A stretch of 64,000 nucleotides of DNA from a virus. Within the stretch, counting starts at the first letter, position 1. Each line of letters opens with the position of its first letter. Where the stretch lies: the IMG/VR virus record IMGVR_UViG_3300048919_000048, positions 87,944 to 151,943 of that record; one strand, written 5' to 3'. A model generated the notes under the pieces. That model worked only from the letters and a program-made list of their open reading frames with translations. It made no database searches and was not told the DNA's origin. Below, one piece after another: positions 20,232 through 63,859 of this stretch. The translations under genes were made by a program, and so were the position numbers.

Positions 20232-22022
20232 TTATTTCAGGTTTGCTGTGACACGCTCACGGATTTCAGTCAGCGTTTCGTCAACCAACAGTTTGCCGTC
20301 ACGGAACACGACACGGAGTTCGTTATCGGCATCGTTGACTTGCTCCAGTTGGAGGTTATCAACCAGCTTCAGTTCTCCGTCTTCACCACGAACAACCTTC
20401 AGGAAGCCCTGAGCAGACTTCTTGCCAAGGTCGGTCTTAGGCTCTTTGACGACCATGATTTGCTGACCGTCGATAACCGCGCCAGTTGCCTTCACGGCCT
20501 GACCCAGAGAATCACGGGTGTTGAACTGAGTGGTGAAAGAACCAACACCAAACACAACGTTGCTTGATGCAAAGCCCTTCGCTTCCAGACGCTCGAAGAT
20601 CTCTTTGGCGCGGGCCACGGTGATGGAGTCACCGTAAATCAGACCGACATGAGTATCCAGAGTGCGGTAGCCTTTGGAGTTCACATCTCCGCCGAACACA
20701 TCGTGCAGGAGTTCAACAGAACCTTTCTGCTCGTTGGTCAGTTCTGGCTTGTCGATAGCCGTCACCTTGCTACCATCAACGTAGTAATACGTGTATTCAG
20801 CACGGTTCCACTCAATGGAGCCACTCATGCGGTACAGTTCACCGTCGAACAGGAAGAAACGCTCAACGATGTCATCGCCACGTTCACCATGTGGAGTATC
20901 CTGACGGACCTCTTCAACGGCGCTTTCCAGTGCCCAGCTTGCCGCTTTTTCCAGAGTACCAGCTTCATCGAGTGCCTCGATTTTACGCCAGTCGAGTGTG
21001 CCACAGATGATATCTTCCGGTACGCCGGAGTCCGGGCGGAATACCACACGACCGTCACGGGCCATGATTTCATCTTTCAGGATGCGAACACCCTCAGTGA
21101 TCAGACGGAACCAGTCATAGCTATCGCCGACATATGACACGAAACCTTTCGGGAAGATTTCCGTGATGTAACGACGCAGGAACTCGACCTCTGCGTGGAA
21201 ACGCAGGTCATCCAGCGACATTTCCGGATGCTCAGAACGAAGGCGTCCGATGATGAAGCCGATGTTCGTTGTTGCAACGCTGTGCTCGGATGCCGGGATG
21301 GAGCCGGATACGAACTTACCCTTCATACCGTAATAACGGTTTGCATACAGAATCGCCGGGATGGTATCTGTACCCTGGGAGTTCATCAGTTGACCGAACT
21401 CAGACTGCGCCGCATCGTGAGTACCAGCCTGACCACGATAAGCAAAGCAGTGGATCTGGTATGGAACGTGCAGGTTGTTGTCACAGGTTTTCTGCGCCCA
21501 CAGTTCAGCCAGCTTACGATACTGCCAGAAAATGGTTGCCGTGGTTACGGTTTTCCAGTTTTCAGAGGAGATCACCGACTCCAGATAGTTAGGTAACCAG
21601 TAGAAGTCCGGATGCGTGTTCTGAATGGTGAACAGCGGAACCTGTACCGGAGAAAGTGTACCTTCCGGCAGAGCACGGATTTCAACAGGCAGGTAACCCA
21701 AGTCGTGCAGCTTTTCAAAGCCCCACGTTTCAACCATGTCCGGGCCGATAGCCAGGTCACAGGTTTCTTTGAATTCGCCGATAGCGTCTTCCTTCGGACG
21801 ACCGAAGAACTCACGGTTGAAGTGGTCGATCAGGAACCACTTGATAAAACCTTGCAGTCCGGCAGACATGACGCGCTGGTCATTGTCGGAGAAATGCTGG
21901 AAGTGCTTGCTTGATCGTGGTGTCATGTTGTCCTGTACGATTTCAGACTTTTTGCTGTACATGGAGATGTGGCTTGGTTTATACCAGTCAGCAAACAGAA
22001 TAGGCAGGTCATTATGTAACAT
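20232..22022 (-). CDS. nadV: Nicotinamide phosphoribosyltransferase family enzyme (NadV / Nampt, possibly Namat)
   Basis: A 596-residue protein of the Nampt family, longer than the human enzyme (491). The family's active-site blocks are in order: AYRGQAGTHD and EFGQLMNSQGTD (about 190-215), SIPASEHSVAT with the catalytic-region histidine (about 240-250), YVGDSYDWFRL, VFRPDSGVPED with the Arg-Asp pair (about 330-340), and VVFGVGSF plus TRDSLGQAVKATG. Nampt couples nicotinamide with PRPP to give NMN. In phages with an adjacent Prs-like gene, as here, the enzyme may instead be Namat, which joins nicotinamide to ADP-ribose pyrophosphate and restores NAD+ directly (NARP1). The two cannot be told apart by eye. 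A GAGGAG site fixes the start. A hairpin separates it from prs. Confidence 0.92.
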   Translation of the reverse strand: MLHNDLPILFADWYKPSHISMYSKKSEIVQDNMTPRSSKHFQHFSDNDQRVMSAGLQGFIKWFLIDHFNREFFGRPKEDAIGEFKETCDLAIGPDMVETWGFEKLHDLGYLPVEIRALPEGTLSPVQVPLFTIQNTHPDFYWLPNYLESVISSENWKTVTTATIFWQYRKLAELWAQKTCDNNLHVPYQIHCFAYRGQAGTHDAAQSEFGQLMNSQGTDTIPAILYANRYYGMKGKFVSGSIPASEHSVATTNIGFIIGRLRSEHPEMSLDDLRFHAEVEFLRRYITEIFPKGFVSYVGDSYDWFRLITEGVRILKDEIMARDGRVVFRPDSGVPEDIICGTLDWRKIEALDEAGTLEKAASWALESAVEEVRQDTPHGERGDDIVERFFLFDGELYRMSGSIEWNRAEYTYYYVDGSKVTAIDKPELTNEQKGSVELLHDVFGGDVNSKGYRTLDTHVGLIYGDSITVARAKEIFERLEAKGFASSNVVFGVGSFTTQFNTRDSLGQAVKATGAVIDGQQIMVVKEPKTDLGKKSAQGFLKVVRGEDGELKLVDNLQLEQVNDADNELRVVFRDGKLLVDETLTEIRERVTANLK

Positions 22023-22075: not shown

Positions 22076-22966
22076 TTACTGGAACTTCACCATCTTGTCA
22101 ACCGATTTGAAAATTTTATTTTCGTTTCGGCCTTCGAGGTTCTTCATCCACGGGTATGCGGAGTAAACCTCGTCGATGACATCCTTAAACACATCCGCAC
22201 CGTAGGAATAAATCCCATGGGTGGTGTACAGAATGACTTCGCTTGCGCCTTGGTCACGAAGGACCTTGCCCAGTTCGATGAAGGTTCGACCGCCATCGCA
22301 GATGTCATCAACCATAATCACACGCTTGCCCTTAACGTCAGGGCCGGAGTATGTGGTATCCGTGATCTCATTGGTAATGAGGTTTCGGTGCTTCGTACCA
22401 ACACCAATATGTCGGTGACCAACCTTCTTCGCCAGCTTGGTGACTTTCTTAATCGCCCCGGCGTCAGGTGCCACAATGACAGCGTCATCAAAGAAGCCCG
22501 GGCCGAGAATATCCAGAGCCAGTTCGTATTGCTCGAAGACGGATACGTTTTTGATGTGGGACGGGGACACGTCTGAGTGCGGGTCATCCACAATAATTCG
22601 GTCAAAGGAGCACAGCCCCAGAATTCGACCAAACACCTCAGCCGACAGCGGCTCACCTGGAACCATAACCCGGTCTTGTCGGGCATACGGGATGTAGGGC
22701 AGGTGGCAAACCTTTTTCACCAAGTGCCCGGTGCCACGACCCAGACGGTTGAATGCGTCGGTGAACAGGAGCAGGTCCATGATGGCATCTGAACTGTCCA
22801 CGTTGGCATAGACCACCAGGTCTTTACCTTCCGGCATGTTTTCTTTCAGATCGGGGTTGAATGGGCTGGTCAGCATATACCCGTTGATACGGACGCTGCG
22901 CTCACCCCCGGCGAATGTTCCAAATTCGATATCCAGTTGGCTACCGCCAAGATATGCACGAATCAT
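22076..22966 (-). CDS. prs: Ribose-phosphate pyrophosphokinase family enzyme (Prs, possibly Adps)
   Basis: A 296-residue enzyme of the PRPP synthetase family. Visible family blocks are YIPYARQDR (canonical ATP/flexible loop region, about residue 90-98), IIVDDPHSDVSPS, APDAGA (canonical SPDAG) near 170, and the PRPP loop VIMVDDICDGGRT near 220. Classical Prs transfers pyrophosphate from ATP to ribose 5-phosphate. In NARP1 phages the homologue next to a Nampt-like gene is Adps, which pyrophosphorylates ADP-ribose. The departures in the PRPP loop (DGGRT in place of the DTAGT-like form) and the neighbouring nadV make Adps a serious option. Acts in the cytoplasm of the infected cell. AGAGGAG precedes the ATG. 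Confidence 0.92.
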   Translation of the reverse strand: MIRAYLGGSQLDIEFGTFAGGERSVRINGYMLTSPFNPDLKENMPEGKDLVVYANVDSSDAIMDLLLFTDAFNRLGRGTGHLVKKVCHLPYIPYARQDRVMVPGEPLSAEVFGRILGLCSFDRIIVDDPHSDVSPSHIKNVSVFEQYELALDILGPGFFDDAVIVAPDAGAIKKVTKLAKKVGHRHIGVGTKHRNLITNEITDTTYSGPDVKGKRVIMVDDICDGGRTFIELGKVLRDQGASEVILYTTHGIYSYGADVFKDVIDEVYSAYPWMKNLEGRNENKIFKSVDKMVKFQ

Positions 22967-29575: not shown

Positions 29576-30094
29576 ATGTCGAACAGCATTAACCTGACCT
29601 TCATCGAAAAATGGATCAACAATGTATCGATCTACCCTCCGGCAGAGATTTTCTTCCAAGCTCCAAAGAGCCAAGAGAAGAAAGAGAAGCGCTGCAAGGA
29701 GATTTGTGAGTCTCTATACCGTTTCAACTGGGAGGACTCCCCGGTGCCAAACCCAATAGGCACTGTTCGTGAGATTGTCCGGGAGATGGTGGTGGTTGAT
29801 AAACTGTTCGAATACAACCGATTCCCACCGGATTACCAGAACATCCTGAAATTGCTTGCGAGGTTTTTGAAGGCGGCATGTTATCTGATCGACCAGTTGA
29901 ACGATATGCACAAAGAGCATGAGAAACTGAGCGAATGGTACTTGGAATGGCGACGTGGTCAGTTGCACATCATAATGAACGCAAACCGCTGGGGTGCTGA
30001 CATCCTGCGATTGCCGACAGAGGGCGAGTACGCCGATCAGATTCAAAAACAGTTTTTAGACGACGTATCACTGACACTGAAGGAAATGGAATGA
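29576..30094 (+). CDS. Helical protein of unknown function (172 residues)
   Basis: The product starts MSNSINLTFIEKWINNVS and is predominantly helical, with a charged KSQEKKEKRCKEICESL segment near residue 35 and a LARFLKAACYLIDQLNDMHK helix near 100. It has no signal or membrane segment. AGAGGAA precedes the ATG. It heads the operon of small genes transcribed from the promoter at 29517. No family is recognised. Confidence 0.65.
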   Translation: MSNSINLTFIEKWINNVSIYPPAEIFFQAPKSQEKKEKRCKEICESLYRFNWEDSPVPNPIGTVREIVREMVVVDKLFEYNRFPPDYQNILKLLARFLKAACYLIDQLNDMHKEHEKLSEWYLEWRRGQLHIIMNANRWGADILRLPTEGEYADQIQKQFLDDVSLTLKEME

Positions 30095-30294
30095 GGACAG
30101 ATATGAAATGGCGTGACCTAGCCTTGCAGTTCGATGGTCATCGTATGCAGGCTCTCTGTTTTCTGAAGCAGATTCTCGGATCTTTGCCGGAAACGGAGTT
30201 CCCAGAGGCCCGGCAGTTTTTGAAAGAAGGTCCAATCCCCGGCGAAGAGATCCTTCGTCAACGTCTACAGGAAATGATGGAGAAAATAAAATGA
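30091..30294 (+). CDS. Small protein of unknown function (67 residues)
   Basis: The product starts MRTDMKWRDLALQFDGHRMQ, is helical, and overlaps the genes on both sides by four bases (ATGA-type). The end is FLKEGPIPGEEILRQRLQE. A coupled member of the operon; no family is recognised. Confidence 0.6.
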   Translation: MRTDMKWRDLALQFDGHRMQALCFLKQILGSLPETEFPEARQFLKEGPIPGEEILRQRLQEMMEKIK

Positions 30295-30497
30295 AATACT
30301 TCGCACTGGGCTTTTCTATCGCAGCACTGGTTGCCGTCATTATGATGGGTAATGCACAGGCGGCACAGACGCTTGACCTGGAGGATTACTACACCGACGG
30401 CAGCGACAAGGTATGCATCTACAGCAACGGTCGAACCACTGTGGCAATCACTCACGAGGGGGGCGGTTCTTGCCCTTCCAAATACGTTAAGCACTGA
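30291..30497 (+). CDS. Small exported protein with signal peptide
   Basis: A 68-residue protein with an N-terminal signal: MKYFALGFSIAALVAVIMMGNAQA, cleavage likely after AQA at about residue 24. The mature part of some 44 residues has two cysteines (VCIY and GGSCPSK) that could form a disulfide bond in the periplasm. It is coupled to the gene before it by a four-base overlap. An exported protein of this size could block superinfection or alter the envelope; that is inference. No domain is recognised. Confidence 0.7.
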   Translation: MKYFALGFSIAALVAVIMMGNAQAAQTLDLEDYYTDGSDKVCIYSNGRTTVAITHEGGGSCPSKYVKH

Positions 30498-30504
30498 GGT
30501 GACA

Positions 30505-30717
30505 ATGACATATTTCAAAATTAAGTCAGCGCACCTGCCGTGGCTGGAGATGGAGATTTGCAAGGGGACGATCTTTTATCAGCACTACAGCTTCGCCACA
30601 CCAGACTGGGTTCCATGCGGAGCTTACCGGGAAGGCAGTGCCAGCTATGATCGTCTGTCGGCAGAAGAGGTCAGCCGCATGATCAAAAAAGACAAAAACG
30701 TATACTGGAGGAACTGA
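30505..30717 (+). CDS. Small protein of unknown function (70 residues)
   Basis: The ATG at 30505 with GAGGTGA upstream gives 70 residues starting MTYFKIKSAHLPWLEMEIC; the longer frame upstream lies across the exported-protein gene and is not used. Aromatic residues are frequent (YQHYSFATPDWVPCG). A basic helix ends the protein. The stop overlaps the next start by one base. No family is recognised. Confidence 0.6.
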   Translation: MTYFKIKSAHLPWLEMEICKGTIFYQHYSFATPDWVPCGAYREGSASYDRLSAEEVSRMIKKDKNVYWRN

Positions 30718-31229
30718 TGACTTTATTCGAAGAGTACGCGATGTTGGTGTCCAACGGCAATGCTGACTTGCACAAGGACCTCCACGGGTGTTATGATGAC
30801 CCACAAGTGATGTTGCTGCTGGTGGACTTTGAGCGCAAGGTGAAAGCCAATCTCTTCAGTGTATTCGACGAGATGGCTCCTGAAGGTCTCCCGGATGTTT
30901 GCTACAAAGTGGCGGATTGGTGGGACGGACGTAAGTTGCAGCGCCGGATTGTGTCGGCAGCAAATCGCTTCGAACTGAAGGACGGTGGGACTCTGGTTAT
31001 CCCCGGTGCCCGTCACTACTCCCGCGATATGGCGGCGGTTATTGACCAAGTACGCGACAAACTGGTGAATGATCATGTGCATGGGGATGACCAAGGGTTC
31101 ATCGACCAGTGGGGAGAGTACCACACCCGCGAAGAAGCAGTTATCATCGCCACCCACGCCGGACAGATTGACCGCTGGCGTCGAAAAGGTGGTCCGGCAA
31201 ACGAATTATTCAGCGAGGACCTTTACTGA
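30717..31229 (+). CDS. Conserved-looking phage protein of unknown function (170 residues)
   Basis: The product starts MTLFEEYAMLVSNGNADLH. The C-terminal half carries the motif series VIPGARHYSRDM, then GDDQGFIDQWGEYHTREEA, then GQIDRWRRKGG and ELFSEDLY. This series recurs in a widespread phage family of unknown function, as far as can be recalled. The His, Asp and Glu residues are spaced as in a possible active or metal site. The start overlaps the previous stop by one base. Confidence 0.7.
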   Translation: MTLFEEYAMLVSNGNADLHKDLHGCYDDPQVMLLLVDFERKVKANLFSVFDEMAPEGLPDVCYKVADWWDGRKLQRRIVSAANRFELKDGGTLVIPGARHYSRDMAAVIDQVRDKLVNDHVHGDDQGFIDQWGEYHTREEAVIIATHAGQIDRWRRKGGPANELFSEDLY

Positions 31230-31468
31230 TGGGTAGGTTAAGGGTCGGTGAAAGTCATGACAATCCATTTATGACTTTATCACAATTCCAGAAGTATGCG
31301 TCCCCACGCGACTGGAAATGGTTCTCCACATCGTTCTTTGAGGCGGGGTATGGAAACGACACACCCGGCGAGGTTATGATTCACTTCTATGAGTGCAGAA
31401 ACAAGTACATGTCTGAAAGATGCGCTGAAGAAATGAGCGCTTGGTACAATAAGGAGAGAGGGATTTAA
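31229..31468 (+). CDS. Small protein of unknown function (79 residues)
   Basis: The product starts MGRLRVGESHDNPFMT and is rich in aromatic residues, with DWKWFSTSFFEAGYG. It overlaps the stop of the gene before it and the start of the gene after it by one base each. No family or motif is recognised; the coupled position is the main support that it is translated. Confidence 0.6.
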   Translation: MGRLRVGESHDNPFMTLSQFQKYASPRDWKWFSTSFFEAGYGNDTPGEVMIHFYECRNKYMSERCAEEMSAWYNKERGI

Positions 31469-31626
31469 TGAAAATCTGGACAATCTTTTACAAAGTTGAT
31501 GGCGTTGAGAAAACGTACCAAATCCCGGCGGAAGACTATATTCACGCCCTTGTGCGCCTGGGTCAGATCTACGGCGACAAAGAAGGCAAAGATGATCGTG
31601 TAATCGTCGTGCAGAAGGTGATGTGA
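31468..31626 (+). CDS. Small protein of unknown function (52 residues)
   Basis: An ATG at 31468 with AAGGAGAGAGG upstream opens a 52-residue frame starting MKIWTIFYKVDGVEK. Strands alternate with a helix DYIHALVRLGQIY. It ends with an overlap on the next start. Its length is below common annotation cut-offs, but site and overlaps support it. Confidence 0.6.
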   Translation: MKIWTIFYKVDGVEKTYQIPAEDYIHALVRLGQIYGDKEGKDDRVIVVQKVM

Positions 31627-31964
31627 TGGAAACTGTGACTATCGAAGTATTTGCGGTGGATATGTCGAAGGCTGTCGGGTTCCGCAAGATGGAGCCTACT
31701 GGCCCGGCGGGGCTACGATTCGGACTGTATCTTCCGGCGAAGGGTGAGAAATTGACCCGATTTGGTCAATTGGTGGATATTCTTGACGCCCATTTGATTG
31801 ACAGCCCGTTGTTCCCGTGGAAGATTTCCTATATCCACATCAACCCCGGGTATTACAAAGAGGATTCCAGTATTCTGCTGGCGCAGTATCTTCCGGAGCT
31901 TCCTTTGTCGGCAGACTGCCGCATCAGTTGCCCGGCGTCCCTAATTTTTGGAGATGGACTATGA
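31626..31964 (+). CDS. Protein of unknown function (112 residues)
   Basis: The ATG at 31626 overlaps the previous stop; a GTG one codon upstream is possible. The product starts METVTIEVFAVDMSKAVGF and has glycine and proline in the middle (MEPTGPAGLRFGLYL), a helix FGQLVDILDAHLI, and a C-terminal CRISCPASL stretch. Beta-alpha-beta character is likely. No family is recognised. Confidence 0.6.
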   Translation: METVTIEVFAVDMSKAVGFRKMEPTGPAGLRFGLYLPAKGEKLTRFGQLVDILDAHLIDSPLFPWKISYIHINPGYYKEDSSILLAQYLPELPLSADCRISCPASLIFGDGL

Positions 31965-32161
31965 TTAAGATTCTTTTTGCATTTCTCTATGTCGTGTTCA
32001 TCGTCGCTATGAGTTGCATTATTCCGGCGATTATGATCCCGGTGTTCCAAGACTACGGGTTGTATGCCCGAGATGTGGTCGGTTTCACCCTGACGATCAC
32101 CCTAATTTCTGATATAATCCTGCTCGGATTTGGGGCAGTGGTGTGGAGCGTATACGCATGA
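31961..32161 (+). CDS. Small membrane protein (66 residues)
   Basis: The ATG at 31961 overlaps the previous stop (ATGA). Two hydrophobic spans are seen at about 4-28 (LFAFLYVVFIVAMSCIIPAI) and 42-64, with a short polar turn. Small two-span proteins of this sort can be holins or membrane modifiers. Its place far from the endolysin makes a holin role less likely than for the protein at 60073. Confidence 0.6.
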   Translation: MIKILFAFLYVVFIVAMSCIIPAIMIPVFQDYGLYARDVVGFTLTITLISDIILLGFGAVVWSVYA

Positions 32162-32355
32162 AAGTGATTCATCCAATCAAAAACGGCATGTTCCCGATCC
32201 AGACAGTCCTGCGGGACCTTGCTAACCAAGAGAACTGCGATGGTGATCCATATGACCAGATGTATCAGGCCGCTGATTACATCGACGATCTGGAGGCTCG
32301 CTTGGAGTTCTTCCGTGAAAAGTACAACCGACTTGCCGGGGAGTTTAACGTATGA
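32158..32355 (+). CDS. Small protein of unknown function (65 residues)
   Basis: The ATG at 32158 overlaps the previous stop, giving MKVIHPIKNGMFPIQTV. It has a long C-terminal helix (ADYIDDLEARLEFFREKYNRL) that could be a coiled coil. It overlaps the next gene by four bases. A longer in-frame start at 32143 lies inside the previous gene and is less likely. Confidence 0.6.
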   Translation: MKVIHPIKNGMFPIQTVLRDLANQENCDGDPYDQMYQAADYIDDLEARLEFFREKYNRLAGEFNV

Positions 32356-32540
32356 GTTATGTTGCGGGTTTTTACATGATCACTCAGCGAAATGGCCTGA
32401 CGCCGATCAAGTTCCGCATTGATGGTCATCAAGTCATACCGACATTCTCGTCATATCGTGAGGCATCTATGTTCGCCGACGATAACGTTCCGATGGATGT
32501 TGACTACCGTGTCACTGAAGTAGCTATTGGGAGAGCATAA
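32352..32540 (+). CDS. Small protein of unknown function (62 residues)
   Basis: The product starts MSYVAGFYMITQRNGLTP and alternates strands (KFRIDGHQVIPTF) with a helix REASMFADD and a final strand VDYRVTEVAI. It overlaps the genes before and after. No family is recognised. Confidence 0.6.
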   Translation: MSYVAGFYMITQRNGLTPIKFRIDGHQVIPTFSSYREASMFADDNVPMDVDYRVTEVAIGRA

Positions 32541-33097
32541 TGAAAGTAACCGATAAGCATGTGTTCTTTTACTCGTGGAAGGACATGTTTAGCAATCATT
32601 ACCGCAATGACCGGGCTTTCGCTTTACCGCGCCATGAGCAGGAAGGTGTGAAGTTCTACACTGGGGAGCACATGATGATGTACGAAAAGGCCATGCTGTT
32701 TGCCGATCACAATATCGCCCGGCAGATCACAGAGGTCTTCCACCCGCAAGAGGCCAAGATGCTGGGCCGTAAGGTAAAGGGATTCAACAACGTACTGTGG
32801 GAGAAGTCCAGAGAGCAGATCGTCGAGAACGTCTGCTACTGCCGCCTGGTGTTCGACCTCGGCCTCCGCTGCGAGGCGATACAGCACCGACTGGCGGGCC
32901 GCAGTTTCGTCGAGGCATCTGACCGGGATCGCATCTGGGGTGTGGGTCTGAGCCAAGATCACCCGATGATTGATGACGAGGCCAACTGGCTGGGCCTGAA
33001 CCTACTGGGTAAGGCGTGGGACCGGGCGACTGACGCCCTTATTGATCGCTGCGGCGGATATGACCGTGTGAGAGGTGATTTTGCAGATCAAGCATAA
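32540..33097 (+). CDS. NADAR (YbiA/RibX-like) family protein
   Basis: A 185-residue protein matching the NADAR (DUF1768) pattern over most of its length: an opening strand VFFYSWKDMFSN, then FYTGEHMMMYEKAMLFAD, then AKMLGRKVKGFNNVLWEKSREQIV, then CEAIQHRLAGRSFVEASDRDRIWGVGLS and GLNLLGKAWDRA. Conserved Trp, Glu, Lys, Arg and Asp residues of the presumed active site are in place. NADAR proteins act as N-glycosidases on riboflavin intermediates or on ADP-ribosylated nucleotides and DNA bases. In a phage also carrying nadV and prs, an ADP-ribose counter-defence role is attractive. The exact substrate is inference. Confidence 0.85.
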   Translation: MKVTDKHVFFYSWKDMFSNHYRNDRAFALPRHEQEGVKFYTGEHMMMYEKAMLFADHNIARQITEVFHPQEAKMLGRKVKGFNNVLWEKSREQIVENVCYCRLVFDLGLRCEAIQHRLAGRSFVEASDRDRIWGVGLSQDHPMIDDEANWLGLNLLGKAWDRATDALIDRCGGYDRVRGDFADQA

Positions 33098-33584
33098 GAT
33101 TTGTCTAATCCCACAAACGGCGTGGGATAACAACCTTCGCTCCTACCTCACCCAAGCTGGGTGGGATAAGGTGCGCCGTAAGTGCTATGCCGAGCACAAC
33201 TATACCTGCCAGATCTGTGGCGGGCAGGGTGGTAACGGAAGAAAACATCCGGTTGAGTGCCATGAAAGCTGGACATTCGAAAACGGAGAGGTTAAACTGG
33301 TCGGCCTCATGAGCCTGTGTCCGCCGTGCCATGAGTTCCACCACCCGGGACTCGCAGAGAAGAACGGGAAATTGGAAAGAGCGATCAAGCAATTCATGAA
33401 GGTCAATGGGATCAGTCGTGATCAGGCCATTGCCTATCTGAAAAGTGAGTTCGCCACATGGCAGCAGCGCAGCCAGCAGGAGTGGTCGCTTAACATCGAC
33501 TACCTGAGTGAGTACATGGGGCCGGACTTCAAGTTCAAGCGCCCCGTCAAGGAAGACAAGGATGATTTTGGTGATGCGTTCTAA
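33075..33584 (+). CDS. HNH-like endonuclease
   Basis: A 169-residue protein. Residues about 38-92 carry a zinc-bound HNH-type core: CQICGGQGG, then HPVECHESWTF and KLVGLMSLCPPCHEFHHPG. The second CxxC knuckle and the CHEFHH histidines fit a beta-beta-alpha metal nuclease. The helical C-terminus could bind DNA. The start is GTG 33075 inside the previous gene (23-base overlap); TTG 33081 is an alternative. It may be a homing-type endonuclease or take part in DNA processing. It lies just upstream of a FEN-like exonuclease. Confidence 0.75.
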   Translation: MILQIKHKICLIPQTAWDNNLRSYLTQAGWDKVRRKCYAEHNYTCQICGGQGGNGRKHPVECHESWTFENGEVKLVGLMSLCPPCHEFHHPGLAEKNGKLERAIKQFMKVNGISRDQAIAYLKSEFATWQQRSQQEWSLNIDYLSEYMGPDFKFKRPVKEDKDDFGDAF

Positions 33585-33596
33585 GAGGAGTAGGTA

Positions 33597-34709
33597 ATGG
33601 GTTATCCTGTAGTAGAAAACTTTAAGGATATTGTTACGGATGATGTTACTATTGTTCTTGATTTGGATCAGACGTGTTATGTTGCGGCGGCGGGCGCGGA
33701 AAAGCGAACCATTATCGCAACCCACATTAAGTCTGGTCGCCAGATGGAGTTCAAGAACAAGACGGAGTTCTGGGGCCGACAGCAAACCGTAGTTGGCGGC
33801 TGGCTGAAGGACCAGAACACCAACATGGAAGCCAAAATGCTGGCGTCGGGGAAGGAATTCAAACCTTGGACCCGTGAGGACTTCACGATCGAGGATAAGC
33901 AGACCCCGGAACCCGTGGAGAACTGCCTGCATTTGCTGAAGATCAAGATCAACGCGATCCTTGAGCATATGGGCACAACCAATGGGCTGGGCGTCCTTGG
34001 AGGGGAAGGTAATTTCCGGCTGGTTTTACCTACTCCGGAGATCTACAAAGGGAACCGTGAGGATACTATCCGGCCGCTCCTTTTGGCAGACACTCGTGAG
34101 TATGTCCAGCGTAAATACGGCGCGATCGTCATCGACGGTATCGAGGCCGATGACTACCTGACCATGAAGCAGTATGAAGGCTGGTTGCATTACAAAAAGA
34201 CTGGCAAATTCAACTACATTGTGGCATCCTTCGATAAGGATCAGGTGCAGTGCCCGGGGCTGATCTTCAACACCATGCGCGATTCGACAGAGCGCGACTG
34301 GAAGCACCCGCTCCCGTGGCTCATTGATGACTCCATGGGTGAGATCTGGATGGAGAGCGGGAAGGTTAAGGGCTGGGGCAAGAAGTTCTTTGGCTACCAG
34401 ATGCTGTTCGGTGACCAGTCGGATAACGTCAAGCCGTACCAGAACTTCGACAAGATCCGGTTTGGTGAAACATCTGCCTTCAAGGTCATCTCTCCTTGTC
34501 AGGACGAGAATGCCATGTGGGCAGCGATCGTTAATCAGTACAAGAAGTGGTTCCCTGACGGGGTTGAGTTCACTGACCACATGGGTGTTCCTCGTAAGTT
34601 CACCGCCGGGCAGTGGGCATCGGTTATCTTCCAGGCTGTCTACATGAAGCGTACACCGGACGATAACACCACTTTGGGAAATGTTCTTCGTAAAGCGGGG
34701 GTTGTGTAA
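33597..34709 (+). CDS. FEN-like 5'-3' exonuclease / flap nuclease
   Basis: A 370-residue protein with the acidic clusters of the FEN/PIN superfamily: IVLDLDQTCY (about 20-28), DGIEADDYLTM (about 182-190), IVASFDKDQVQCPG (about 210-222) and MLFGDQSDNVK (about 265-275). These Asp residues bind two metal ions. Phage relatives such as T5 and T7 exonucleases remove RNA primers and trim 5' ends during replication and recombination. A GAGGAG site precedes the ATG. It neighbours other nucleases in a DNA-processing block. Confidence 0.85.
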   Translation: MGYPVVENFKDIVTDDVTIVLDLDQTCYVAAAGAEKRTIIATHIKSGRQMEFKNKTEFWGRQQTVVGGWLKDQNTNMEAKMLASGKEFKPWTREDFTIEDKQTPEPVENCLHLLKIKINAILEHMGTTNGLGVLGGEGNFRLVLPTPEIYKGNREDTIRPLLLADTREYVQRKYGAIVIDGIEADDYLTMKQYEGWLHYKKTGKFNYIVASFDKDQVQCPGLIFNTMRDSTERDWKHPLPWLIDDSMGEIWMESGKVKGWGKKFFGYQMLFGDQSDNVKPYQNFDKIRFGETSAFKVISPCQDENAMWAAIVNQYKKWFPDGVEFTDHMGVPRKFTAGQWASVIFQAVYMKRTPDDNTTLGNVLRKAGVV

Positions 34710-46834: not shown

Positions 46835-47572
46835 ATGCGTCATAGCAATCGTCAGGCACGTCAGGATCGTCGTAAGGATAAATTTTCAGCGGGTCGCCAG
46901 GTGACACCGAAGGCGGAGCCGGAACTGAAAAAGCCGATCACACCAAAGGGTCGGTTCCAAAAGGATCTTCTCAACGCCATTCACCAGCATCAGGCCGTTT
47001 TTGTTAACGCGCCCGCCGGGACTGGTAAGACGTTTGTAGTGATGAGTACCGCTATCGACTGGTTGAAGCAAGGCAAGATCGATAAAATCATTCTTTCCCG
47101 CCCAACAGTGGGGATGGGTAACAGTATCGGCCTCCTGCCCGGGACTATCCGGGAGAAGTTTGAGCCGTTCTTGGCAGCGCTGGTTCAGGTTGTCAAGGAT
47201 CGCTACGGTCACGGCTTCTATGAAACGCAGTTGGGTTGTGGTAACATTGAGTTCGTTCCGCTGGAATACGTTCGTGGTCGTTCTTTCGAGAACGCTGTGG
47301 TTATCGTCGATGAGTTCCAAAACACCGACATTGAAACAGCGTATACGATCATGACTCGTACCGGGGAAGGCTCTAAGCTGTATTGCTTGGGTGATATTTC
47401 CCAGAACGATATGAAGAGTCGTGAGACTGGTCTTAACTGGGCAATTGAGTTCATTGATCGACACGAACTGTTCGACTTTGCTGACTACGTGGAAGGGACG
47501 AGCGACGATATCGTTCGAAGCGACCTGTGTAAGGCAGTCGTCAAGGCTCGTGAGAAAGACCTGGAGGGTTAA
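46835..47572 (+). CDS. phoH: PhoH-like ATPase
   Basis: The product is 245 residues from the ATG at 46835 (GGGAGG upstream). After a basic N-terminus the P-loop APAGTGKT is at residues 59-66, followed by IILSRPTVGMGNS, LEYVRGRSFENAVVIVDEFQNTD with Walker B and YCLGDISQND. This is the PhoH/RNA-helicase-like ATPase common in phages, with a suspected role in RNA or phosphate metabolism. The next gene starts at an overlap with its stop. Confidence 0.88.
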   Translation: MRHSNRQARQDRRKDKFSAGRQVTPKAEPELKKPITPKGRFQKDLLNAIHQHQAVFVNAPAGTGKTFVVMSTAIDWLKQGKIDKIILSRPTVGMGNSIGLLPGTIREKFEPFLAALVQVVKDRYGHGFYETQLGCGNIEFVPLEYVRGRSFENAVVIVDEFQNTDIETAYTIMTRTGEGSKLYCLGDISQNDMKSRETGLNWAIEFIDRHELFDFADYVEGTSDDIVRSDLCKAVVKAREKDLEG

Positions 47573-48174
47573 TGACGGCATACACCGGGATTGGTTCCCG
47601 TGAAACCCCGGATGAAGTCGTAGGCGTCATGGAGGACGCCGCTTACCGACTGGCCCGAATGGGGTTTGTATTGCGTTCCGGAAAAGCAGCCGGGGCCGAT
47701 GCGGCGTTCCAACGTGGGGCGCAGAGGTTTAAAGGTGCAAAGTGCGAGATCTTTATCCCGTGGAGAGGGTTCACAGGCGGGGATGGACTGATTAGCGATT
47801 GGGACATAACCTTGGATGCTGTGGACAGGCAATTCCCAGAACACGCAGAAATGCGTTGGGATTGGGTTAAAGAAGTGCATGGTGGATGGGAGAGATTGTC
47901 CCAAGGCGCTCGCAAGCTGCACGAGCGTAACGTCCATCAGTTGTTTGGTGCGGATCTCGGCAACGCCTACTTGAACCAAAGCAAGTTCGTGATATATTAC
48001 GCTCTTGAAACCAAGAAGGGTGATCCAAAAGGTGGTACTGCGACGGCGGTAAATCTGGCGAAGAAGCAGGGTATCCGTACCTTGAATCTCCTCCACGATA
48101 AAAACCGAGAGGTGCTTGAGAAGTTCTTGGTGAGTATGGAGGTTAAGCGTGGCATTAAACAAGAGCAACCTTAA
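47572..48174 (+). CDS. DprA/SLOG-like Rossmann protein
   Basis: A 200-residue protein with a nucleotide-binding Rossmann start, MTAYTGIGSRETPDEVV, then LRSGKAAGADAAFQRGAQRF, and a later KGGTATAVNLAKKQGI. This is the layout of DprA/LOG (SLOG) proteins, whose GG-x-GTA motif binds nucleotides. Phage members are uncharacterised. SLOG domains bind NAD- or ADP-ribose-derived signals in some immune systems, so a decoy or cleavage role is possible but unproven. DNA-binding in transformation (DprA) is the other known role. It is coupled to phoH by one-base overlap. Confidence 0.7.
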   Translation: MTAYTGIGSRETPDEVVGVMEDAAYRLARMGFVLRSGKAAGADAAFQRGAQRFKGAKCEIFIPWRGFTGGDGLISDWDITLDAVDRQFPEHAEMRWDWVKEVHGGWERLSQGARKLHERNVHQLFGADLGNAYLNQSKFVIYYALETKKGDPKGGTATAVNLAKKQGIRTLNLLHDKNREVLEKFLVSMEVKRGIKQEQP

Positions 48175-50889: not shown

Positions 50890-51110
50890 GTCATGTAGTA
50901 AGAGATTATCTGTTCGAGGGGTGCCAAATACCCCAGAAATTCATGGATGCGGTATACAGCCCCTCTTGGGACGCAAGAAACATGCGATTCCAAGGGACTG
51001 ATCAGGCAGACTACGGCGAAGCGATCACCGTGCGCATATCGGCAGAGAGCAATGAGACCTTGGACTGGTTCCTCGGCGAATGGACCAACTGGAGAGAGGT
51101 GAAGCAGTGA
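50886..51110 (+). CDS. Small protein of unknown function (74 residues)
   Basis: The product starts MSHVVRDYLFEGCQIPQKF. It has tryptophans near both ends (SPSWDAR and DWFLGEWTNWREV). It is coupled by four-base overlaps to the genes before and after. No family is recognised. Confidence 0.6.
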   Translation: MSHVVRDYLFEGCQIPQKFMDAVYSPSWDARNMRFQGTDQADYGEAITVRISAESNETLDWFLGEWTNWREVKQ

Positions 51111-52426
51111 AAATTTATTTGGTTGGCGGGGCAGTCCGCGATGAACTGATGGGTGTGCCAAGCAAGGACCGTGATTACGTGGTTGTTGGCTCAACCCATG
51201 AAGAAATGCTGTCCTTGGGGTTCGGTATGCCGCACGGCGCTGCCTTCCCGGTGTACCTGCACCCGGAGACAAAGGAAGAGTATGCACTGGCACGTAAAGA
51301 GCGCTCTACCGGGGACGGATACCACGATTTCGAAGTTATGTTCAGCCCGGATGTGACCATCGAAGAGGACTTGGCCCGCCGGGACCTGACTATCAATGCG
51401 ATCGCAAAGGATCTGGAGACCGGGGAATACATCGATCCATACGGCGGCATCCGTGACATCCAAAAAGGTGTCCTGAGGAACGTATCAGCGGCAGCGATGC
51501 GTGAAGACCCTCTCCGAATCTACCGACTGGCCCGCTTCCTGGCCCGATTCGGCGGCAAGTTTGTGGTGGACCACTCAACGATGTTCATTTGTGAGAGTGC
51601 AAAAGCGACACTGGCGGCGCTCCCGAAAGAGCGCAAGATGGCGGAGATCCGAAAATGCTTCGAGGACCAGAGCAATGATAACCGACCATCGTTGATGATC
51701 GATATGCTCTGCAATCTCGGCGAGATGCCGGAGGTGGCGAACCTGCGTGGTGCTTTACAGCCTAAATCTCACCACCCAGAGGGCGACGCATACATCCACA
51801 CCCTCCTGTGCCTGGATTACGCCCAACGCATCATGTCGGCCCCGGAAACAAAGTGGGCTGTTCTGTGCCATGACCTCGGTAAAGTTCAGTATTTTGAGTA
51901 CGGAAATCTGCACGGGCACGAGGAGTTCGGTGTTGTATTGGTTGAACAACTGAGTAATCGCTTCGGCGTACCGAACAAATGGGTGGACCTCGCCAAGCGT
52001 GTTTGTGCCGATCACACCCGTCTGCACCGGATCATGGATCTGAAGCCACGCAAGGTGTTTGAGTTGATTGAGCGTATCAAGGCTCATAAGCCGGACGAAA
52101 ATCACTTTGCCTTGAAGTTTATGGAGGCTTGCCTGTGTGATGCACGGGGCCGTGGCCCAGAGAAAATGTTTGACATCTACGATCAGCCTCATGTATTATG
52201 GGCCTGTGCTGTGGAGTTGCACAAGAACCGACTGGAAATCTCTGAGAAAAGCAAAGAGATCTCCGCCCGGCTGGCAGGTCGTCGTGAATTAATCTCTTCA
52301 GAGATCAAAGCGATGAAAGTAAAATACGTTGCCCGCGCCCTTGTCAGGGTAAAGGCAGAACTTAAAAAATTAAGAGAGGAGGAAGGTTATGACGATTCCA
52401 ATTTACCTACTTGGCGTCTGTATTAG
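51107..52426 (+). CDS. cca: Multifunctional CCA tRNA nucleotidyltransferase, GTG start
   Basis: The product is 439 residues from GTG 51107, overlapping the previous stop (GTGA). The class II head KIYLVGGAVRDELMG (G7-G8, R11-D12) is followed by KDRDYVVVG, RRDLTINAIAKD and EDPLRIYRLARFLARFGG. An HD domain follows, with LCHDLGKVQYF and KRVCADHTRLHR, as in gammaproteobacterial CCA enzymes that also have phosphatase and phosphodiesterase activity. It adds or repairs the 3' CCA of tRNAs. Since the tRNAs here already encode CCA, repair of damaged ends is its most likely task. Confidence 0.92.
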   Translation: MKIYLVGGAVRDELMGVPSKDRDYVVVGSTHEEMLSLGFGMPHGAAFPVYLHPETKEEYALARKERSTGDGYHDFEVMFSPDVTIEEDLARRDLTINAIAKDLETGEYIDPYGGIRDIQKGVLRNVSAAAMREDPLRIYRLARFLARFGGKFVVDHSTMFICESAKATLAALPKERKMAEIRKCFEDQSNDNRPSLMIDMLCNLGEMPEVANLRGALQPKSHHPEGDAYIHTLLCLDYAQRIMSAPETKWAVLCHDLGKVQYFEYGNLHGHEEFGVVLVEQLSNRFGVPNKWVDLAKRVCADHTRLHRIMDLKPRKVFELIERIKAHKPDENHFALKFMEACLCDARGRGPEKMFDIYDQPHVLWACAVELHKNRLEISEKSKEISARLAGRRELISSEIKAMKVKYVARALVRVKAELKKLREEEGYDDSNLPTWRLY

Positions 52427-53803: not shown

Positions 53804-54024
53804 CCAAAGACTGTACCAACTGCGATAACTTCATCCGGGTTAAAAAGCCCGGATGGGTAGGTCTGTGTGATTTGCACGATTGGAGGATTAATGGAAAATA
53901 CCATTGTGGCAAGTGGAAGGGTAAAAAGCATCGTAGAGAAGCTGGAAAGTCACAAAGACGTATCGAAGGTGCTGATGTTATGTCTCGCCGGATCTCATGC
54001 GTATGGGACGGCGACTCCGACTAG
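53794..54024 (+). CDS. Small cysteine-rich protein overlapping the RlaP-like gene
   Basis: An ATG at 53794 opens 76 residues with CTNCDNF, GLCDLHDW and YHCGKWKGKK, a set of cysteines and histidines that suggests a metal-binding fold. Its C-terminal half overlaps the next gene by 134 bases in another frame, an unusually long overlap, so part of the frame may be fortuitous. The N-terminal motif set and a four-residue overlap with the previous gene favour translation. Confidence 0.45.
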   Translation: MSLTKDCTNCDNFIRVKKPGWVGLCDLHDWRINGKYHCGKWKGKKHRREAGKSQRRIEGADVMSRRISCVWDGDSD

Positions 54025-55015
54025 CGATACCGATATCCGTGGCATCATCGTGGCCCGCCCGGGAGTAATCCGGGCACCGTTCCGAACCCTGCGTGAGATG
54101 GGGATTGAGGACGAGGAGGACGGCAAGGTTTACGAACTGAACAACTTCATGGAATTGTTCTGCGACATGAACCCGAACATCATCGAACTGGGATTCACCG
54201 ATGACCAGGCGACGCTGTATAAGCACCCGGCTTGGGACTATTTAAGGTCCTTCCTGCCACAACTGCTTAACAAGAACGTTGCGTTCCGTTTCGGCGGCTA
54301 TGCCATGGCGCAGTTGAAACGCATCAAAGGCCACAACAAGCATATCAACAACCCTATGCCGGAGGCCAAGCCTACCCAACTGGAGTTTTTCCGCTTGGTG
54401 CAGAGCTATCTCGACGTGAAGGTGTTTAAGCATGAAGACTTTATGCGTAAACTGAACAACATGGAAGGCATTTGCACCTTGGTGCCGTTCGGTGCGGATA
54501 TCTACGGCGTTGTACCGGACCACCGTGAAAATGTTGGCCCGATGTTCAACCCGGATGGCTCGATCCGTAAGTTGCAGTACGACGAGATCCCGGAGTCTGT
54601 GAAAAAGCAGCCTCCTTTGTTCATCGTTAAGTATCTGAGGCAGGATCACATGGTTGCCAAGGATAAGCACCACAACTACTGGCAGTGGGTGAAGAACCGT
54701 AACGCCGCCCGGCACGAACTGGAAGAGAAGTTCGGTTACGACACCAAACATGCCATGCACTTGGTGCGACTGCTACGAATGGGGGAGGAAATCCTGGAGA
54801 CCGGGCAGGTTATCGTCCGCCGACCTGACGCAGATGAACTGCTCGGCATCCGCAACGGGACCCACAGCTACGATGATATCGTGGAATGGGCGTCCGACAA
54901 GGACAAACTGATCCGTGACGTTCTCTACCGCGAGAGTAAGTTGCCGAAGAACAGCAACAAGCGATTGGCGGAAGAACTGATCCTCAACGTCCAGGATGCC
55001 GCATGGGAAAAATGA
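53891..55015 (+). CDS. RlaP-type predicted nucleotidyltransferase
   Basis: The product is 374 residues from the ATG at 53891 with GGAGG seven bases upstream. The polymerase-beta-type core is at LAGSHAYGTATPTSDTDIRG (Gly34-Ser35, Asp46, Asp48). It has the length and long helical C-terminus of the RlaP (PF10127) family, which is found next to RNA ligases and thought to act in RNA repair. In this genome it sits three membrane genes downstream of the CCA enzyme. No RNA ligase gene is in the window. Its substrate is unknown. Confidence 0.8.
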   Translation: MENTIVASGRVKSIVEKLESHKDVSKVLMLCLAGSHAYGTATPTSDTDIRGIIVARPGVIRAPFRTLREMGIEDEEDGKVYELNNFMELFCDMNPNIIELGFTDDQATLYKHPAWDYLRSFLPQLLNKNVAFRFGGYAMAQLKRIKGHNKHINNPMPEAKPTQLEFFRLVQSYLDVKVFKHEDFMRKLNNMEGICTLVPFGADIYGVVPDHRENVGPMFNPDGSIRKLQYDEIPESVKKQPPLFIVKYLRQDHMVAKDKHHNYWQWVKNRNAARHELEEKFGYDTKHAMHLVRLLRMGEEILETGQVIVRRPDADELLGIRNGTHSYDDIVEWASDKDKLIRDVLYRESKLPKNSNKRLAEELILNVQDAAWEK

Positions 55016-62698: not shown

Positions 62699-63859
62699 AT
62701 GTTCGAAATGATGACTGCTATGGGGAAGCCACCACTCCCGGCGGGAAACATAAAAAAGTTCAGTACAGGCGCAAATGCCATTGTGGCCCTTTCAAAGAGC
62801 GGTAATCTGTACTCCATCGGGGACTCGTGGTTCAGTGGAACTGGCGGAACTACAACCGTTTGGACCCTGGTGGGATCGGGTGTTGAAGAATTTTGGACCG
62901 GATACCGACAACTTCTCGTTAAGATGGTTGATGGACGATGGATGTTCATGGGGTCTAACCGCCAATTCCCGCTTACCATTGGGACAAGTCCCACAACCCT
63001 GCAAGATGTAACTGCCTATATGCAATACACGGCGGGGCTTAGCATTAAGCAGGTTGTTGTCGGGAACTATTCCCTGGCAGTTGTGTTCACCAATGGTCAG
63101 TATGCCATGTGTGGTGCCAATTCCAACGGTGGCCTGGGGCTTGGTAACCAGACGGCTGTCCGTGGCCTGACAATGAGAACAGACTTCACTAACGTCAAGA
63201 AAATTGATTTTGAGTGGGCACTTCCTGATACGTCATACATGCTACTGAATGACGGAAGGGTGTTTGCAGCAGGGGATTCTTCAACAGGCTGCGCCGGAGT
63301 GGCAAGCGGGAACGTCTTGACATGGACCCAACAGGCTGTCGCTGTTTCTGGGTCACCTTGCATCGACATCGTTGCCGGGGCTAGCGGATGGTTTCGTGTC
63401 GTAGAGACACCGTCAGACTATAGGATATTTGGGCAGGGTCGCCAGTTCGATGGTTCCTTGGGGACCGGACAAACAAGTTCGACAAACATGACAACCCCGA
63501 CGTTGTCATACACTGTCACAAGTAAGTCTGGAGGTCCACCTGTTGTTCAGGTCGGGTTGTATTGTGCAAGGTTTATTCACCCGGTGACTCTCAAAGAGAT
63601 GTACACAGGGACCAACTCTAACTCTCAGCAGGGCGGGGGGTTGGCTTGGGCTTCTCCTGTCAGGTATTCCTTTACAGAGATGCCTGTAACACCTGTGGTT
63701 GGTGATTTCACGAACATGCGGGCAAATTATTCTGGGGCCTACAAGGTCAGTAACAACATCCTGTATGGGGTTGGTGTGAATACCGCTTCCGGCTATCTCC
63801 CGGGGCTTGGTACAAGGGTCTATGAGTTCACGCCTTTAGATACGACACTTATCAATTAA
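62699..63859 (+). CDS. RCC1-like beta-propeller protein
   Basis: A 386-residue protein built of repeats resembling RCC1 blades: NAIVALSKSGNLYSIGDS, YSLAVVFTNGQYAMCGANSNGGLGLGN, SYMLLNDGRVFAAGDSS, SGWFRVVETPSDYRIFGQG and a late YSGAYKVSNNILYGVG. Each gives the strand, D/NG turn and glycine-rich loop of an RCC1 repeat, so a six- or seven-bladed propeller is likely. In phages such propellers may serve as adhesins, tail-tip or host-binding proteins. No signal peptide is present. GGAGGA precedes the ATG. A strong terminator follows. Confidence 0.75.
   Translation: MFEMMTAMGKPPLPAGNIKKFSTGANAIVALSKSGNLYSIGDSWFSGTGGTTTVWTLVGSGVEEFWTGYRQLLVKMVDGRWMFMGSNRQFPLTIGTSPTTLQDVTAYMQYTAGLSIKQVVVGNYSLAVVFTNGQYAMCGANSNGGLGLGNQTAVRGLTMRTDFTNVKKIDFEWALPDTSYMLLNDGRVFAAGDSSTGCAGVASGNVLTWTQQAVAVSGSPCIDIVAGASGWFRVVETPSDYRIFGQGRQFDGSLGTGQTSSTNMTTPTLSYTVTSKSGGPPVVQVGLYCARFIHPVTLKEMYTGTNSNSQQGGGLAWASPVRYSFTEMPVTPVVGDFTNMRANYSGAYKVSNNILYGVGVNTASGYLPGLGTRVYEFTPLDTTLIN

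What the first reader, a model, noticed from the sequence alone, without database searches (positions are those of the whole stretch)
32540..33097. NADAR-family protein in a phage that also carries a NAD+ salvage pair
The YbiA/NADAR pattern is clear over the whole protein. NADAR domains are linked to removal of ADP-ribose from nucleotides or guanine in DNA. Together with the prs-nadV pair this suggests a wider NAD/ADP-ribose counter-defence set, for example against DarT-like DNA ADP-ribosylation.
Basis: partly seen in the sequence, partly recalled or inferred. Interest (0 to 1): 0.7.

Follow-up and report, generated by a model that had tools for sequence, protein, structure and literature searches.

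The report
Phage NADAR enzyme with NAD-rebuilding pair
A bacteriophage gene encodes an intact enzyme of the NADAR family, which removes ADP-ribose from guanine, in a phage that also carries what looks like a known pathway for rebuilding NAD from ADP-ribose; the enzyme is an ordinary member of a well-described group, and only the possible hand-over between the two is a fresh idea.

Summary
Window 32540-33097(+) encodes a 185-aa NADAR protein (Pfam E 5.5e-32). Its AlphaFold model (mean pLDDT 96.9) matches the ADP-ribose-bound NADAR structure 8bau (Z 21.2). All catalytic residues and nearly all ADP-ribose contacts are kept, under strong purifying selection. It belongs to the glutamate-type (YbiA) family, not the histidine-type T4 gp30.3 or aspartate-type DarT1-linked family. 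It is a conserved gene of the Certrevirus, Seunavirus and Mydovirus phages examined.

ADP-ribose hydrolysis is very likely; anti-DarT use is plausible and already published in outline for phage NADARs, but E. coli YbiA and T4 gp30.3 did not rescue DarT1 toxicity. The "prs-nadV salvage pair" needs correcting: the NadV-like protein carries the Namat signature (GSFTTQFNTRD), so the pair looks like NARP1, which makes NAD+ from ADP-ribose and nicotinamide. NADAR's expected product is NARP1's input, a link that no held paper makes. Against a general module, the genes lie 9.6 kb apart on opposite strands, and NADAR is rarer in Namat-type (5 of 38) than in Nampt-type (19 of 50) phage contigs. Verdict: new member of a known kind, modest interest.

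The parts
32540..33097 (+). NADAR (YbiA-family, glutamate-type) predicted ADP-ribosyl N-glycosidase, 185 aa; catalytic E43, K50, E125
20232..22022 (-). NadV-like protein, 596 aa, with the Namat signature GSFTTQFNTRD at residues 494-504; probable nicotinamide ADP-ribose transferase of NARP1
22076..22966 (-). Prs-like protein, 296 aa, 53 nt upstream of the Namat-like gene in the same direction; probable Adps (ADP-ribose pyrophosphorylating enzyme) of NARP1
   Evidence: Adps-specific residues not tested
33075..33584 (+). downstream ORF annotated as HNH endonuclease in CR9, CR3, SSE121 and KNP2; same neighbour in the relatives (context only)
33597..34709 (+). exonuclease gene of the replication module, following the HNH gene(s) in CR9, CR3, SSE121 and KNP2 (context only)
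47572..48174 (+). DprA-like (possibly SLOG-superfamily) protein, a candidate further ADP-ribose-related gene
   Evidence: PHROG 768 E 5.5e-63; Pfam DNA_processg_A E 0.0015, below cut-off; CR9 gp224 annotation. That DprA belongs to SLOG is recalled.

Best explanation
The gene encodes a catalytically competent NADAR of the YbiA family that hydrolyses the N-glycosidic bond between ADP-ribose and a base, most likely guanine in nucleic acid, releasing ADP-ribose. The phage most likely keeps it as a counter-defence enzyme that cleans ADP-ribose off its genome, or off RNA, when a host guanine-ADP-ribosylating toxin such as DarT1 or YarT is active. Shown here: family, fold, retained catalytic residues, purifying selection, and a conserved place in the replication region. 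Inferred: the reaction (about 0.85), the counter-defence role (about 0.55), and DarT1-type DNA modification as the main target (about 0.35).
For: Pfam and NCBIfam matches above cut-off. Model mean pLDDT 96.9, pTM 0.91; 8bau, a NADAR with bound ADP-ribose, is the best match by Foldseek (E 2.1e-9) and by VIA-align (Z 21.2, rmsd 1.6 A over 162 residues); YbiA 2b3w Z 15.4. The residues reported in P. nicotianae NADAR (PMC11543638, passages seen) map as E43=E43, K50=K50, K75=K73, R79=R77, W89=W87, R93=R91, E125=E125, D130=D130, W133=W133, with one change, D86=N84. K73 aligns with the lysine that E. coli C7 NADAR needs for DarT1 rescue in vivo (K115); that column is A in E. coli YbiA and Q in T4 gp30.3, the two that failed to rescue. 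dN/dS is about 0.04-0.13 in the certrevirus pairs that could be computed. The order MazG region ... NADAR - HNH - exonuclease - endonuclease VII - polymerase exonuclease is kept in CR9, CR3, SSE121 and KNP2. Published activity: NADARs reverse guanine ADP-ribosylation on DNA and RNA (PMC11543638, PMC11125620, PMC11833690; passages seen). Johannesman 2025 Nat Commun carries an anti-DarTG1 claim for phage orphan antitoxin-like enzymes in its title (reference line seen; paper not held; its NADAR/AdfN content is recalled).
Against: E. coli YbiA, also glutamate-type, and phage T4 NADAR did not protect from DarT1 in cells. The DarT1-linked subfamily uses an aspartate (D171) that this protein lacks. 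YbiA-family enzymes have a reported riboflavin-intermediate activity, and the curated model the protein passes (TIGR02464) bears that name. Iyer and co-authors argue that phage NADARs mainly act on soluble ADP-ribose derivatives (PMC9503650). The host and its defence systems are unknown, and no host DarT was searched. The T4 alignment in the K73 column is weak (18% identity).
Confidence: 0.55

Rival explanations
1. The NADAR acts on small soluble ADP-ribose derivatives, such as cyclic ADP-ribose immune signals or toxic by-products, rather than on modified nucleic acid.
For: Proposed for phage NADARs in general from genome context (PMC9503650 sections 3.4.3, 3.7.2 and 3.7.4). The phage also carries a probable NARP1, which answers NAD+-depleting defences, and a DprA-like protein.
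Against: The characterised NADAR activity is on guanine-ADPr. No NADAR was seen cleaving cyclic ADP-ribose in the passages read. No NADAR enrichment with Namat-signature NadV.
Confidence: 0.2
2. It is a metabolic housecleaning N-glycosidase like E. coli YbiA, acting on early riboflavin intermediates or other damaged nucleosides.
For: Glutamate-type YbiA family; TIGR02464 'riboflavin biosynthesis intermediates N-glycosidase' above cut-off; it sits among nucleotide-metabolism and replication genes.
Against: No riboflavin-synthesis family appears in the Pfam scans of 76 window proteins. The ADP-ribose pocket residues K73 and R91 match the ADPr-bound NADAR better than E. coli YbiA does (A and K there).
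Confidence: 0.13
3. It serves RNA: it removes ADP-ribose from guanosines of tRNA or mRNA, or works beside RNA repair.
For: NADARs reverse guanosine-ADPr in RNA (PMC11833690). The window carries 18 tRNA genes, a tRNA nucleotidyltransferase at 51080-52426 and an RlaP-type 'RNA repair pathway' nucleotidyltransferase at 53867-55015.
Against: The two nucleotidyltransferase genes lie about 18-22 kb from the NADAR gene. No KptA-type enzyme appeared in the Pfam scans.
Confidence: 0.1

Closest known systems
YbiA family of NADAR proteins (E. coli YbiA 2b3w; P. nicotianae NADAR 8bau)
   Same: Fold (Z 15.4 and 21.2), glutamate at the last strand, catalytic E43/K50/E125
   Different: Phage-encoded; 26% identical to E. 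coli YbiA; keeps the K75-equivalent lysine that E. coli YbiA lacks; N instead of D at the adenosine-ribose contact
Phage orphan NADAR anti-DarT factor (AdfN; Johannesman 2025, title seen as a reference only, content recalled)
   Same: Stand-alone NADAR in a phage; proposed counter to DarTG1
   Different: Here glutamate-type, in a Vequintavirinae phage; anti-DarT activity untested. T4 gp30.3 is histidine-type and 18% identical
DarG1, the DarT1-linked NADAR antitoxin
   Same: Superfamily, E88/K95 equivalents and the K115-equivalent lysine
   Different: No D171 equivalent and no adjacent toxin gene
NARP1 (Adps plus Namat)
   Same: Adjacent Prs-like and NadV-like genes; [quoted passage not shown] best solved match is SPbetaL1 Namat (9w5x, E 4.5e-124; human Nampt about 1e-45)
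   Different: Position 5 of the motif is T instead of the usual aromatic; an insertion of roughly 90 residues absent from SPbetaL1 Namat; activity untested
RyDEP plus NARP1 (PMC13232231, passages seen)
   Same: A phage glycosidase whose product, linear ADP-ribose, can feed NARP1
   Different: RyDEP has a different domain (RyR, PF02026), cleaves cyclic ADP-ribose, and lies inside the NARP1 operon; here NADAR lies 9.6 kb away on the other strand

Membership tests
NADAR superfamily (PF08719) | Profile match above curated cut-off | tested here: met
   111.7 bits against 35.1
NADAR superfamily (PF08719) | YbiA fold | tested here: met
   8bau Z 21.2, 2b3w Z 15.4; model mean pLDDT 96.9
NADAR superfamily (PF08719) | Catalytic Glu and Lys (E43, K50 in P. 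nicotianae numbering) | tested here: met
   E43 and K50 present; each in 55 of 55 phage and IMG/VR sequences aligned, E43 being inside one of the peptide patterns used to fetch part of them
NADAR superfamily (PF08719) | Hydrolysis of guanine-linked ADP-ribose | not testable with these tools
   needs an assay
YbiA family | Glutamate in the last strand near the catalytic centre (PMC11125620, PMC11543638) | tested here: met
   E125
Phage gp30.3 type | Histidine at that position | tested here: not met
   E here, H in T4 30.3
DarG1 (DarT1-linked, BC4488 family) | Catalytic aspartate (D171 in E. coli C7) | tested here: not met
   E125 at the structural position; the residue two before it, where D171 lies relative to E173, is F123
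DarG1 (DarT1-linked, BC4488 family) | Adjacent darT toxin gene | tested here: not met
   neighbours are a small unknown ORF and an HNH gene; no ART family in 76 window proteins scanned
DarG1 (DarT1-linked, BC4488 family) | Lysine K115 needed for DarT1 rescue | tested here: met
   K73
DarG1 (DarT1-linked, BC4488 family) | Basic N-terminal extension of the fold | not tested
   no DarG1 sequence or electrostatics compared
AdfN (phage anti-DarT factor) | Protects phage from DarTG1 | not testable with these tools
   paper not held; needs an infection assay
NARP1 | Namat signature GSX-Phi-X-Phi-X-Phi-TRD with aromatic positions 3 and 7 | tested here: met
   GSFTTQFNTRD at 494-504; position 5 departs
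NARP1 | Neighbouring Adps (Prs-like) gene | tested here: met
   22076-22966, 53 nt upstream; in a check of the signature, a Prs-like gene lies in 47 of 80 Namat-motif loci and 5 of 80 Nampt-motif loci
NARP1 | ADP-ribose pyrophosphorylation and NAD+ synthesis | not testable with these tools
   needs an assay

The most novel reading that the evidence does not exclude
NADAR and NARP1 together form a recycling route in this phage lineage: NADAR strips ADP-ribose from toxin-modified guanine, and Adps plus Namat join the freed ADP-ribose to the nicotinamide released by the toxin, so that the phage both repairs its nucleic acid and recovers the NAD+ that the defence consumed. RyDEP is a published precedent for a different ADP-ribose-releasing enzyme feeding NARP1; no held paper has both the words NADAR and NARP1.
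Probability: 0.2. Interest if true: 0.6.

Novelty: new member of a known kind. Interest (0 to 1): 0.3.

Why it matters
Phage NADARs are mostly annotated as hypothetical proteins or as 'GTP cyclohydrolase II' in the records listed. This one is a complete glutamate-type enzyme that keeps a lysine needed for DarT1 rescue, so it is a clean test of whether YbiA-type phage NADARs, and not only the T4-like ones, counter DNA ADP-ribosylation. The corrected reading of the neighbouring pair as NARP1 makes a simple coupled assay possible: does ADP-ribose released from modified DNA become NAD+?

Tried and rejected
Chance or pseudogene: rejected. gp30.3-type or DarG1 membership: rejected on the catalytic residue. 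G. lovleyi NADAR 8bat was not listed by Foldseek, VIA-align or the profile search; this absence is not used as evidence that the folds differ.

NADAR linked to NARP1 across phages: tested and not supported. Of IMG/VR contigs of at least 90 kb, PF08719 was found in 5 of 38 with the Namat motif and 19 of 50 with the Nampt motif (Fisher p 0.015). I examined 38 of 119 Namat-motif loci (all those that I read as lying in contigs of at least 90 kb) and 50 of 52 such Nampt-motif loci of 120 (the two smallest, L214 and L232, were dropped to fit the limit). PF08719 does not detect T4 gp30.3, so histidine-type NADARs are missed in both sets. Only 80 of 119 and 80 of 120 loci were checked for being NadV-like (all were). 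Conversely, in 45 NADAR-bearing records (with T4 and V5 set aside) 26 have a NadV-like gene, and 23 of these 26 carry the signature; but the query there was itself Namat-like, many records are close relatives, and at least one phage (CR3, also as G002) is present twice.

Riboflavin genes, ARTs, macrodomains, Nudix, TIR or sirtuin domains in the window: none listed in Pfam scans of 76 of 114 chosen ORFs; the other part of the virus record was not scanned for them. Phylogeny: the query groups with POP15, L105, CR3 and CR9; deep forks are open, and T4 30.3 and YbiA are long branches whose place is unsure. One sequence (L128, stop at codon 20 of the frame used) was dropped from the residue table, and five with later stops were cut at the stop. 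E125 and D130 are part of the peptide pattern that fetched the bacterial set, so their conservation there is by construction. Two single-protein scans for a neutral control set gave too few contigs (5 and 3) and were left.

Full report
What is there. The window is bases 87,944-151,943 of an IMG/VR virus record of 151,943 bp, close to Cronobacter phage CR9 (Certrevirus, Vequintavirinae; 91.6% over 95% of window 28-38 kb). The ORF at 32540-33097(+) encodes 185 aa. Pfam NADAR matches at E 5.5e-32, and NCBIfam TIGR02464, the YbiA-type N-glycosidase model, above its cut-off. PADLOC lists the candidate-system model PDC-M42C at 81.9 bits; the NCBIfam anti-phage NADAR model NF053876 reaches only 25.9 bits of the 240 needed.

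Relatives. 671 of 50,697 phage records hold a relative by tblastn, 28 of them at 60% identity or more; the 28-38 kb region itself matches 28 records, although I did not check that the two sets are the same. In CR9, CR3, SSE121 and KNP2 the gene lies between the MazG region and an HNH - exonuclease - endonuclease VII - polymerase exonuclease run (KNP2 has two HNH genes there); POP15 has a similar gene layout, mostly unannotated. Of 17 phage records examined with Pfam models, 15 have NADAR and 9 of those 15 also have a NAPRTase-family (NadV) gene; Escherichia phage V5 and T4 have neither by these models. Within Vequintavirinae the five certre-, seuna- and mydoviruses examined have both, and V5 has neither, which is at least one shared gain or loss and no more.

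Structure and active site. The AlphaFold model from a 62-sequence alignment has mean pLDDT 96.9 and pTM 0.91. The best solved match is 8bau, P. nicotianae NADAR with ADP-ribose (Foldseek E 2.1e-9; VIA Z 21.2 over 162 residues), then E. coli YbiA 2b3w (Z 15.4). Residues named in PMC11543638 (passages seen) map as E43, K50, K73 (K75), R77 (R79), W87 (W89), R91 (R93), E125, D130 and W133, all kept, with N84 for D86. The numbering was derived from the alignment, with an offset of two between the chain and the paper. The glutamate E125 places it in the YbiA family; T4 gp30.3 has H and DarT1-linked NADARs use D. K73 aligns with the lysine that E. coli C7 NADAR needs for DarT1 rescue but not for catalysis; E. 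coli YbiA has A and T4 gp30.3 has Q there. Those two were active in vitro but did not rescue DarT1 toxicity (PMC11125620 section 2.1). This correlation is a lead, not proof.

Selection and exchange. Pairwise dN/dS among certrevirus alleles is about 0.04-0.13 where dS could be estimated. The core of the gene looks exchanged: its middle falls to 68-85% identity with CR9 in 100-nt windows while windows on either side reach 92-100%, and the same stretch is 88-93% to POP15. Against CR9 it is among the 9 of 92 aligned genes at or below 82% (median 96%); four of the other eight lie in the adjoining variable block 29.5-32.2 kb, so this marks a recombining region rather than the NADAR gene alone.

The NAD pair. 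The genes at 22076-22966 (Prs-like) and 20232-22022 (NadV-like) are adjacent on the minus strand. [quoted passage not shown] The window protein has GSFTTQFNTRD: aromatic at 3 and 7, T instead of the usual aromatic at 5. Its best solved match is SPbetaL1 Namat (9w5x, E 4.5e-124), far above human Nampt. As a check of the signature, a Prs-like gene lies in the locus of 47 of 80 Namat-motif and 5 of 80 Nampt-motif IMG/VR loci (Fisher p 3.6e-13; loci differ in length). So the pair is most likely NARP1, which makes NAD+ from ADP-ribose and nicotinamide, not a Prs-Nampt salvage pair.

Linking the two. NADAR is expected to release ADP-ribose, the input of NARP1. RyDEP, a different phage glycosidase, is published as feeding NARP1 (PMC13232231, passages seen). 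No held paper contains both NADAR and NARP1. Iyer and co-authors already noted phage NADARs near NadM and NadV (PMC9503650 section 3.4.3). Evidence against a general module: distance and strand, and NADAR in 5 of 38 Namat-type against 19 of 50 Nampt-type contigs of at least 90 kb.

Other genes. Pfam scans of 76 of 114 chosen ORFs show nucleotide metabolism, a CCA-adding-type enzyme, an RlaP-type nucleotidyltransferase and structural genes, and no ART, macrodomain, Nudix, TIR or sirtuin. A DprA-like protein at 47572-48174 may be a further ADP-ribose-related gene if it belongs to the SLOG superfamily (recalled).

Verdict. The anti-DarT reading is plausible and, for phage antitoxin-like enzymes in general, already in print by title. 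The corrections are the family type, the NARP1 reading of the pair, and the absence of a general NADAR-NARP1 link. Interest is modest.

Noticed in passing
L162/L171, G001:C1:101405-103796 (IMG/VR 2595698358): The Namat gene of this certrevirus-like record is split into two open frames (query residues 1-263 and 266-596) separated by about 0.6 kb, as if interrupted by an intron or homing element inside the gene.
   Followed up: no
window 20232-22022 (residues about 344-430): The Namat-like protein carries an insertion of roughly 90 residues absent from SPbetaL1 Namat.
   Followed up: no
window 29576-33000: Block of genes with low identity to CR9 between highly similar flanks; it ends inside the NADAR gene.
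   Followed up: partly
window 51080-52426 and 53867-55015: tRNA nucleotidyltransferase with HD domain and an RlaP-type nucleotidyltransferase in a phage with 18 tRNA genes.
   Followed up: partly
window 62699-63859: RCC1-repeat protein, a eukaryote-like repeat, not aligned to the CR9 stretch compared.
   Followed up: no
L005:4001-4558 (phage CR3): The NADAR gene is annotated from a later start (4136), which cuts off 45 residues including E43; the full frame is open.
   Followed up: no
L023 (CAKLQF020000017.1): Record labelled Acinetobacter phage carries rpmI, rplT and ybiA, so it looks like bacterial chromosome.
   Followed up: no
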